Origin: Halieaceae bacterium MED-G27
GTDB lineage: Bacteria > Pseudomonadota > Gammaproteobacteria > Pseudomonadales > Halieaceae
Direction of reading: 5' to 3'
DNA: 55,223 bases
NCBI GenBank assembly: GCA_002456975.1
Contig: NTKA01000009.1
Location: forward strand, 1-55,223
The notes beneath the pieces are model-generated. The model saw nothing but the letters and a program-made list of their open reading frames with translations. It did no database searches and had not been told where the DNA came from. Below, piece by piece: positions 24,130 to 25,729 of this stretch (the stretch's first letter is position 1; each line of letters opens with the position of its first letter). The translations under genes were made by a program, and so were the position numbers.

Positions 24130-25203
24130 TTAGCCCCCCGCCAAGCCCGGTATTTCGCAGAAGTTATCGGCCTCTACTTTCACGCTTACCGCCGAATTGC
24201 AATGGGTGCCCGCAGACCAGGAGGGCATCACCATCGAATACAGGCCACTGCCACCCGCCTGCAGAATCAAGATCTGTTCAGGACCCTTGAACGCCATGCG
24301 GCGAGATGGGTTCTCACCGGCGAAGGCTGGCATCAGACGTTTCACCATCTCGGGCTCGAGGAAGCAACGCTCATAGAGTTCGTTGGCAATCTGCTGACGA
24401 CTCAGTCCCGCCTTATGCAAAATCAGACTGTGCTCGGGATTGAGTACGACTGTTGCCGACCCACCGGTGAGAATGGCGTTATTACTCGGGGCATTGGCGA
24501 GAGCCATAGCGAGCAAATCGAGCAACACTTTATAGCTATCAGGGTCGTCACCGTCGCCCGCAAATAACACCGAATGAGGTGCCTCGGCACCCAACACCGT
24601 AACCACACTGTCATCAGCATCGAACCCAAGATCGACGTGCATCGGTGGAAACGGGCTGTTTTCCTCATCTTCCGCCAGGCAATAAGTGAACTTACCTGGA
24701 TGTCCAAGCAACGCCATATCGGAACTACCTGGCCGCGCCTTGCCGATGTTAATCATCGTTAGCCGTAGCGCTCGACCAATCGAGGCGTTGGCGCGATGCC
24801 CGGGGCCCAGTGCACCCGTGCCCGAAGCGATAGGACCGCAGTTGTGCCGAGCGGGACCATTGACCAATACCAGCGGCGCCGTGCAGTGCGTTGTGGCCTG
24901 CATCTCGGTGAGATCGAACCGTGGATCGATAACAGCCTTTACCGCAGCAACTACCACGGGCATGTAATCGGGCAAGCAGCCCGCCATGACTGCCGCCACT
25001 GCTACTTTCTCGATAGTGGCCACCCCGTGACCGGGTCCCATCGTACCGAGCACCATATCGCCTTCGATACCTGACGCCAGCACCATCCTCGACACCCGCT
25101 CAGGAGTCGGGATGATAACGGGCAAACCATCGGTACAACCGTCGCGATGCAATGCCTCGAGCGCTTCGGCCTCGTCTTGCGCCGACAGGAATTCAGTCAC
25201 CAT
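24130..25203 (-). CDS. Conserved partner of UGSC selenoprotein, unknown function
   Basis: 357 aa soluble protein with no signal peptide. I recognise a conserved family pattern but no named activity: MAGCLPDYMPVVVAAVKAV, QATTHCTAPLVLVNGPARHN, GHRANASIGRALRLTMINIG, GHPGKFTYCLAEDEENSPF and a C-terminal GGSATVVLNPEHSLILHKAG. Several Cys (CTDGLP near residue 23, MAGC, THC, NCG, TYC, RCF, HCN, FCE) could be redox-active or thiol ligands. Its ATG lies inside the last codons of the UGSC selenoprotein gene (11-bp overlap, different frame), so the two are translationally coupled and very likely work together. Confidence 0.8.
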   Translation of the reverse strand: MVTEFLSAQDEAEALEALHRDGCTDGLPVIIPTPERVSRMVLASGIEGDMVLGTMGPGHGVATIEKVAVAAVMAGCLPDYMPVVVAAVKAVIDPRFDLTEMQATTHCTAPLVLVNGPARHNCGPIASGTGALGPGHRANASIGRALRLTMINIGKARPGSSDMALLGHPGKFTYCLAEDEENSPFPPMHVDLGFDADDSVVTVLGAEAPHSVLFAGDGDDPDSYKVLLDLLAMALANAPSNNAILTGGSATVVLNPEHSLILHKAGLSRQQIANELYERCFLEPEMVKRLMPAFAGENPSRRMAFKGPEQILILQAGGSGLYSMVMPSWSAGTHCNSAVSVKVEADNFCEIPGLAGG

Positions 25204-25729
25204 CGCCCTCTAGAGCACGGATGATTTGGGGCGCGATGCTTTCTGCCACTTCGCGCAAGCGCGCAATGCCGCTGCCAGCGACAGGATGGGGCAATTGAAC
25301 TCGAGGCACATCAGGCATACCCAGGGATTCGGCGACAAAGTCTCCCTGCGGCCAAAACTCCTCGGTGACCAATGCCACCGAGGGAACGCCCATCTTGGCT
25401 AGATTGATGCCGTCACGCACGGTGCCGGTAGTGCAGGAGCCTCAGTGCCCGTAGGCGCCGATGACCCCGACGCATTCACCGCCAATTTCCCCCAGCAACT
25501 GCTCGCTGGCTGGCATGGTGGCATTGCGCTTGTTGTAGGCAACAATCGAAATTCCCGGTTTCAAGGCCTCGATCGCCGCGCCAATCTCATTAAGAAACTC
25601 AACCGAATCAGGAAAGCCGTTGGCGAGTAGGCCAATGCGTGTCTTGCTATCCCCGTCCACCGGAACAGACAAATCGTAAGGGACAGGCTCGACGCTAACG
25701 GCCGCACTGGGATTGTGGTATTCGATCAT
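25193..25729 (-). CDS. UGSC-motif selenoprotein (in-frame UGA = Sec96)
   Basis: A conventional gene caller splits this into two pieces (95 aa and 75 aa), but they are in the same frame and separated only by TGA at 25442-25444 plus seven codons. Read through as selenocysteine, the protein is 178 aa with the junction GAYGH-U-GSCTTGTVRDG, which is precisely the U-G-S-C redox motif known for the UGSC family of selenoproteins and their Cys homologues. The N-half (TRIGLLANGFPDSVEFLNEIG, ISIVAYNKRN) and C-half (GVPSVALVTEEFWPQGDFVA) look like one alpha/beta domain with the Sec at a turn before a helix. A SECIS-like hairpin follows the UGA. The stop overlaps the start of the partner gene. selA/B/C/D must be elsewhere in the genome. 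Confidence 0.88.
25410..25428 (-). promoter_or_regulatory. Candidate bacterial SECIS hairpin
   Basis: On the mRNA, starting 14 nt after the UGA, CCG pairs with CGG and, inside a G-A mismatch, CAC pairs with GUG around the loop CGUGC. The apical loop begins about 20 nt after the UGA and has G at its second position, as expected for bacterial SECIS elements read by SelB. The fold was drawn by eye, not computed. Confidence 0.5.

What the first reader, a model, noticed from the sequence alone, without database searches (positions are those of the whole stretch)
25193..25729. UGSC selenoprotein gene hidden behind an in-frame UGA
Two apparent small genes (95 aa and 75 aa) share one frame and are separated only by TGA (25442-25444) and seven codons. 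Joined, they read GAYGH-U-GSCTTGTVRDG, the diagnostic motif of UGSC selenoproteins. A standard annotation would call this two hypothetical fragments or a pseudogene. The flanking halves show no decay, and the next gene overlaps the true stop, both consistent with read-through.
Basis: partly seen in the sequence, partly recalled or inferred. Interest (0 to 1): 0.9.

Follow-up and report, generated by a model that had tools for sequence, protein, structure and literature searches.

The report
Selenium protein gene with partner gene
A marine bacterium's gene that looks broken by a stop codon is very probably one gene for a known but uncharacterised selenium-containing protein, and it usually sits next to one unstudied partner gene.

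Summary
Window 25729-25193 (-) is one 178-codon gene; the TGA at 25444-25442 very probably encodes selenocysteine. The joined protein matches Pfam UGSC at 6e-41, and each half matches alone. The genome carries selC, selA, selB and selD.

Of 71 aligned family members, 63 have TGA and 8 a Cys codon at this site. selA is over cut-off in 23 of 24 genomes chosen with TGA and in 0 of 8 with Cys. A SECIS hairpin follows the TGA, with compensatory pairs and five codons without synonymous change in 35 sequences from three phyla.

The family is known (PMC2398784). It accompanies UGSC in 28 of 30 and 73 of 80 loci and is fused to a UGSC domain in two species. UGSC is modelled as a Rossmann-like fold, not the published thioredoxin-like guess, and seems distantly related to GrdB/PrdB. 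I infer a thioredoxin-fed selenol reductase pair; its substrate is unknown.

The parts
25193..25729 (-). UGSC selenoprotein gene, ATG at 25729, 178 residues, Sec at residue 96, stop TGA 25195-25193
   Evidence: Translation; Pfam PF24696 6.1e-41; 63 of 71 aligned members with TGA at the site
25442..25444 (-). In-frame TGA inferred to be read as selenocysteine
   Evidence: TGA or Cys codon in 71 of 71 aligned members; selA goes with the TGA form
25410..25428 (-). Predicted SECIS hairpin CCGGCAC(CGUGC)GUGACGG; the loop starts 20 nt after the UGA
   Evidence: No synonymous change in its core; compensatory changes at two of six pairs; minimum-energy fold of one of three stretches tried
25412..25426 (-). 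GGC ACC GTG CGT GAC, five codons without synonymous variation in 35 Sec members; no other exact copy in the held genome
24130..25203 (-). Partner gene, 357 aa, overlaps the end of the UGSC gene by 11 nt; family without Pfam or NCBIfam model
   Evidence: with UGSC in 28 of 30 loci and 73 of 80 loci, 70 of the 73 within 300 nt and 73 on the same strand; AF2 model pLDDT 94.1

Best explanation
The gene makes a 178-residue selenoprotein of the UGSC family. A stem-loop just after the UGA recruits SelB with Sec-tRNA, so the ribosome inserts selenocysteine instead of stopping and then reaches the overlapping start of the partner gene. The protein is modelled as a Rossmann/flavodoxin-like domain with the Sec at the start of the helix after the third strand, three residues before a conserved Cys (UGSC). 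I infer that Sec96 and Cys99 form a selenenylsulfide couple that is re-reduced by thioredoxin/thioredoxin reductase. I also infer that UGSC works in a complex with the 357-aa partner, which would hold the substrate, in the manner of the apparently related GrdB/PrdB subunits of glycine and proline reductase. Supported by comparison: Sec insertion, hairpin, pairing with the partner. Predicted: the fold. Inferred: redox chemistry and complex. Unknown: substrate. The stated confidence is for a selenoprotein of the UGSC family made by UGA recoding; for the reductase-pair mechanism it is about 0.3 (see rivals).
For: Sec: Pfam match of the whole and of both halves; selC 69.7, selA 576.8, selB 390.7, selD 398.2 bits, each over cut-off; TGA in 63 and TGC/TGT in 8 of 71 aligned members; selA over cut-off in 23 of 24 genomes with TGA and 0 of 8 with Cys; in the genus of 57 genomes selA and Sec-UGSC coincide 21/3/1/32, Fisher p 1.9e-11. 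SECIS: codons 102-106 have synonymous diversity 0 in 35 members against a mean of 0.60 (minimum 0.26) at 65 other codons; helix 99.6% paired with 6 doubly changed cells against 0.6 in shuffles, and 94.4% with 16 against 6.0 in the distant clade. Partner: 28 of 30 and 73 of 80 loci, 70 of 73 within 300 nt; fused to a UGSC domain in Sporomusa termitida and Vibrio europaeus. Fold: pLDDT 95.6, strand and helix alternate five times. GrdB/PrdB: hhalign E 4.2e-6, probability 87, Sec aligned on Sec; one reversed and 20 shuffled controls gave 0.041 or worse. trxB near UGSC in 3 of 80 loci, plus one weak partial match, and in 2 of 6 annotated plasmid regions viewed.
Against: Sec insertion was not measured. 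The folding energy of the region is no better than shuffled sequence in three stretches tried (134, 176 and 190 of 200 shuffles fold as well or better), and two of the three fold otherwise; the hairpin alone is -6.0 kcal/mol. Some covariation measures do not exceed the shuffles: further pair types in 260 of 500, pairs changed on both sides and further pair types in 177 of 500. One Cys member, the haloarchaeal L105, can still form a hairpin of the distant-clade kind at -6.0 kcal/mol. The tRNA-Sec search also goes over cut-off in 5 of 14 control genomes. Against the chemistry: the two fused forms have DMGTS in place of UGSC, so some relatives do without Sec or Cys there. trxB is near a small minority of loci. 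The GrdB link is one pairwise profile comparison, and Foldseek finds only generic alpha/beta folds. Neighbouring genes vary widely. 7 of 80 partner loci have no UGSC detected.
Confidence: 0.95

Rival explanations
1. A broken gene: the TGA is an ordinary nonsense mutation and the two ORFs are remnants.
For: The genome is an incomplete assembly (75% complete); the two halves are separate ORFs under the standard code.
Against: 29 of 32 matches in relatives have one TGA inside; protein conservation on both sides of it; five codons frozen after it; selA tracks the TGA form.
Confidence: 0.01
2. UGA is read through by another route (suppression, frameshift or reassignment to another amino acid), not as Sec.
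For: The sequence alone cannot show which residue is inserted.
Against: The 8 non-TGA members of 71 have Cys here; selA is present with TGA forms and not over cut-off with Cys forms; the hairpin has the spacing and loop G of the bacterial SECIS model given in PMC13188914.
Confidence: 0.02
3. UGSC is a general thioredoxin-like thiol oxidoreductase (the published guess), with no special partner.
For: UxxC motif; [quoted passage not shown]
Against: The model alternates strand and helix five times, unlike thioredoxin (thioredoxin topology recalled); no thioredoxin among the 50 PDB matches listed of 1711; near-constant partner gene.
Confidence: 0.15
4. UGSC and its partner form a specific substrate reductase, working like glycine and D-proline reductase, used in breakdown of imported carboxylic or amino acids.
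For: Sec-on-Sec profile alignment with GRDB/PrdB-like proteins; UxxCxxC, the motif given for GrdB in PMC13188914, in 10 of 30 distant members (read off); TctC transporter receptors 10 of 122 neighbours; CoA-transferase III near 13 of 80 and trxB near 3 of 80 loci; class I fumarase beside the partner in L060 and L061.
Against: No pyruvoyl subunit is among the 25 families shown of 129 and of 163 near these loci (capped lists); no GRDB match in this genome (where no control rang either); mixed contexts.
Confidence: 0.3

Closest known systems
UGSC family (Pfam PF24696, NCBIfam NF041046; UGSC-containing protein of the GOS survey, PMC2398784)
   Same: Sec at UGSC, Pfam match 6.1e-41
   Different: Scores under the NCBIfam cut-off; in the passages I read the partner gene is not named, only a fused domain Unknown_1 that may or may not be it
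GrdB / PrdB-like selenoproteins (Pfam PF07355)
   Same: Sec columns coincide in the profile alignment; UxxC at the Sec. Of 21 genomes reached through partner loci, 15 also have PF07355 matches
   Different: Not matched by PF07355; aligned over 71 columns only; partner is not a recognised GrdE/PrdA
Bacterial SECIS model (PMC13188914, Fig 2A legend, passage read)
   Same: 5-nt apical loop with G at position 2 followed by U; spacing 20 nt
   Different: One G-A mismatch in the stem; primary sequence frozen in one clade; hairpin alone weaker than the model's energy limit

Membership tests
UGSC family | Match to the curated Pfam model over most of its length | tested here: met
   PF24696 140.8 bits against cut-off 25, profile 25-171 of 172
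UGSC family | Match above the NCBIfam equivalog cut-off | tested here: not met
   NF041046 104.7 bits against 125; E 4.1e-30
UGSC family | U/C-G-S-C motif with Cys homologues at the Sec site | tested here: met
   63 TGA, 5 TGC, 3 TGT of 71
Selenoprotein | Complete Sec machinery in the genome | tested here: met
   selC, selA, selB, selD over cut-off
Selenoprotein | Sec shown in the protein | not testable with these tools
   Needs 75Se labelling or mass spectrometry
Bacterial SECIS | Hairpin with upper stem of 4-16 pairs, loop of 3-9 nt with G in its first two positions, 16-37 nt from UGA | tested here: met
   Six pairs with one mismatch, loop CGUGC, spacing 20 nt; pairs kept with compensation; model from PMC13188914
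Bacterial SECIS | Minimum free energy at or below -7.5 kcal/mol | tested here: inconclusive
   -6.0 for the 21-nt hairpin; -11.4 for a 53-nt stretch holding it, not better than shuffles
Thioredoxin fold | Thioredoxin topology | tested here: not met
   Model alternates strand and helix five times, pLDDT 95.6; none among the 50 PDB matches listed of 1711
GrdB/PrdB (PF07355) | Match to the family model | tested here: not met
   Not listed by hmmscan with E limit 10, whose filters drop most weak matches; related only by profile-profile comparison
GrdB/PrdB (PF07355) | Reductive cleavage with a pyruvoyl partner subunit | not tested
   Chemistry not testable here; the partner has no Pfam or NCBIfam match at E 0.001, and at E 10 only a sub-cut-off Pfam match of 14.5 bits

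The most novel reading that the evidence does not exclude
UGSC plus its overlapping partner is a two-subunit, thioredoxin-fed selenol reductase found in marine, freshwater and soil prokaryotes: a counterpart of glycine and D-proline reductase built from one GrdB/PrdB-like domain and one protein family that has no name yet. Its mRNA carries a SECIS element whose sequence, not only its shape, is frozen across Gammaproteobacteria, Acidimicrobiia and Chloroflexota.
Probability: 0.3. Interest if true: 0.75.

Novelty: new member of a known kind. Interest (0 to 1): 0.45.

Why it matters
UGSC was among the major selenoprotein families of the ocean survey (255 sequences, PMC2398784, passages read). A 2026 review says of a list that includes it that the biological functions 'remain largely uncharacterized' (PMC13188914, passage read). 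A near-constant partner gene, fused forms, a natural Sec/Cys split that tracks selA, and a confident fold model make the question of what it does testable. The case also shows an annotation error: a Paracoccus plasmid record lists the same gene as two hypothetical proteins.

Tried and rejected
Single-sequence folding of the region gave no signal better than shuffles; comparative evidence was used instead. A relation of the partner to known structures was sought by profile (nothing better than E 0.99) and by fold: best Foldseek match class I fumarase, E 5.5e-4 but TM 0.26 by query and 0.19 by target length, not accepted. Relation of UGSC to solved structures by profile: nothing better than E 0.18. 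A GrdB homologue (L131) has no clear relative in the PDB copy by phmmer, so Foldseek probably could not test that link. A viral fold library gave generic matches. A shared operon beyond the pair was sought with 243 neighbouring proteins; the commonest Pfam families were in 9 of 121 and 10 of 122, so none was found. The partner against Pfam at E 10 gave only a VacA2 match of 14.5 bits, under its cut-off and over 32 residues, rejected as chance. A script pattern for GrdB-like proteins was too narrow and was replaced. A first profile comparison with 26 rows, four of them out of register, gave E 6.7e-6 and probability 67; it was repeated with 22 rows. Literature: searches; in their listings and in the passages read of PMC2398784, PMC13188914, PMC9312934 and PMC1088965 I saw no function for UGSC and no name for the partner. 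The fused Unknown_1 domain of PMC2398784 may be the same partner; its supplementary figure could not be read.

Full report
Observation. The two ORFs, the TGA at 25444-25442 and the overlap with the next gene are as stated. The joined 178-residue protein matches Pfam UGSC (PF24696) at 6.1e-41, and each half alone matches its own part of the model. NCBIfam UGSC_fam is matched at 4.1e-30, below its curated cut-off.

Genome. The window's genome (2.02 Mb in 68 contigs, 75% complete) has tRNA-Sec, selA, selB and selD over their cut-offs; the first three lie together on contig C21. The tRNA-Sec model also goes over cut-off in 5 of 14 control genomes, so selA and selB weigh more. One UGSC match was found in the genome. 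A same-genus relative (G049) has a contig of the same length, 8328 bases, as the Luminiphilus record L051, with the gene at the same place; I infer that the window is Luminiphilus.

Relatives. Of 97 relatives, 26 have a match; of 32 matches, 29 have one TGA inside and 3 none: a Cys form (G053, in whose genome no selA was found), a contig-end fragment (G004) and a weak hit (G061). Within the genus of 57 genomes, selA and the TGA form coincide: both 21, selA only 3 (one of them G004), TGA form only 1 (G026, 62% complete), neither 32; Fisher p 1.9e-11, which takes no account of kinship. Across phyla, 23 of 24 chosen genomes with the TGA form have selA over cut-off (the 24th has a piece at a contig end), and 0 of 8 with the Cys form do; two of those 8 have weak matches below cut-off. 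Some of the 30 loci and the 80 are the same contigs, judged by length.

SECIS. In the 35 aligned Sec members with the GTV motif, codons 102-106 (GGC ACC GTG CGT GAC) show no synonymous variation, against a mean diversity of 0.60 at 65 other scorable codons. By their record titles these members are from Gammaproteobacteria, Acidimicrobiia and Chloroflexota. The hairpin CCGGCAC(CGUGC)GUGACGG pairs in 99.6% of cells with two compensated pairs; the distant clade has another hairpin two bases nearer the UGA, with two pairs changed on both sides, one of them G-C to C-G in 13 of 30. Not every measure beats the shuffles: further pair types are reached in 260 of 500 and 177 of 500, pairs changed on both sides in 8 of 500 and 177 of 500. 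Protein constraint cannot explain the codon choice: CGT is used for Arg105 in 34 of 34, yet in 3 of 26 at Arg8 and 4 of 33 at Arg143. None of the 8 Cys members keeps the 15-nt block, but one, the haloarchaeal L105, can still form a hairpin of the distant-clade kind at -6.0 kcal/mol. Both hairpins have G then U at loop positions 2-3, in line with the published bacterial SECIS model (PMC13188914, passage read). The 15-mer has no other exact copy in the held genome; one place has two mismatches. Folding of the single sequence gives no support by energy.

Partner. The gene 24130-25203 overlaps the end of the UGSC gene by 11 nt. Its family has no accepted Pfam or NCBIfam match. It is present in 28 of 30 UGSC loci; the two without it are a contig-end fragment and a weak hit. 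Searching from the partner instead, 73 of 80 loci have UGSC in the stretch held, and one of the 7 without (L081) is cut at the contig end. In the 73, both genes are on one strand; 70 lie within 300 nt, UGSC first in 59 and partner first in 14. In relatives, 24 of 25 genomes with the partner have UGSC. In Sporomusa termitida and Vibrio europaeus a UGSC domain and the partner are one protein, with DMGTS in place of the motif; the Pfam match of the second is just under cut-off, 24.9 against 25. Among 72 aligned partners Cys76 is invariant. The structure model is confident (pLDDT 94.1) but has no accepted relative among solved structures.

Fold and kinship of UGSC. The model (pLDDT 95.6, pTM 0.90) alternates strand and helix five times and puts Sec96 just before the helix that follows strand 3. 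This does not fit the thioredoxin-like fold suggested in PMC2398784 (section 9 read). Profile comparison with 22 GRDB/PrdB-like selenoproteins from genomes gives E 4.2e-6, probability 87, with Sec on Sec over 71 columns; one reversed and 20 column-shuffled controls gave 0.041 or worse. It is a pairwise E-value.

Context and mechanism. trxB lies near UGSC in 3 of 80 loci (a fourth match was weak and partial) and in 2 of 6 plasmid regions viewed of 24 records matched; CoA-transferase III near 13 of 80. TctC receptors are 10 of 122 neighbours in the distant clade, short-chain dehydrogenases 9 of 121 in the near clade. This hints at breakdown of imported organic acids with thioredoxin as reductant, but at no single pathway, and no background rate was measured. 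The redox step, the complex and the substrate are inferred.

Verdict. To my knowledge from the searches named, the new points are the near-constant partner family, the sequence-frozen SECIS, the fold and the GrdB/PrdB link.

Noticed in passing
L166 5396-5965 (Paracoccus ferrooxidans plasmid pFER4): The UGSC gene is annotated as two hypothetical proteins split at the UGA; selB lies 4.4 kb downstream.
   Followed up: yes
L162 5317-7041 and L164 5395-7080: UGSC-partner fusion proteins with DMGTS instead of UGSC, each near genes annotated aconitase X and DUF126.
   Followed up: partly
L132-L160: Genomes with the partner often carry short PrdB-like (GRDB) genes whose open frame ends at a TGA right after a conserved strand, probably further selenoproteins.
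   Followed up: partly
L060 7057-8577 and L061 1657-3177: A class I fumarase gene lies between the UGSC partner and trxB in two gammaproteobacterial loci.
   Followed up: no
L091 4341-5409: Partner gene matched in two frames; frameshift or assembly error.
   Followed up: no
L100, L117, L119, L125, L126, L128: Partner genes with no UGSC detected in the stretch held, also with a more sensitive model.
   Followed up: partly
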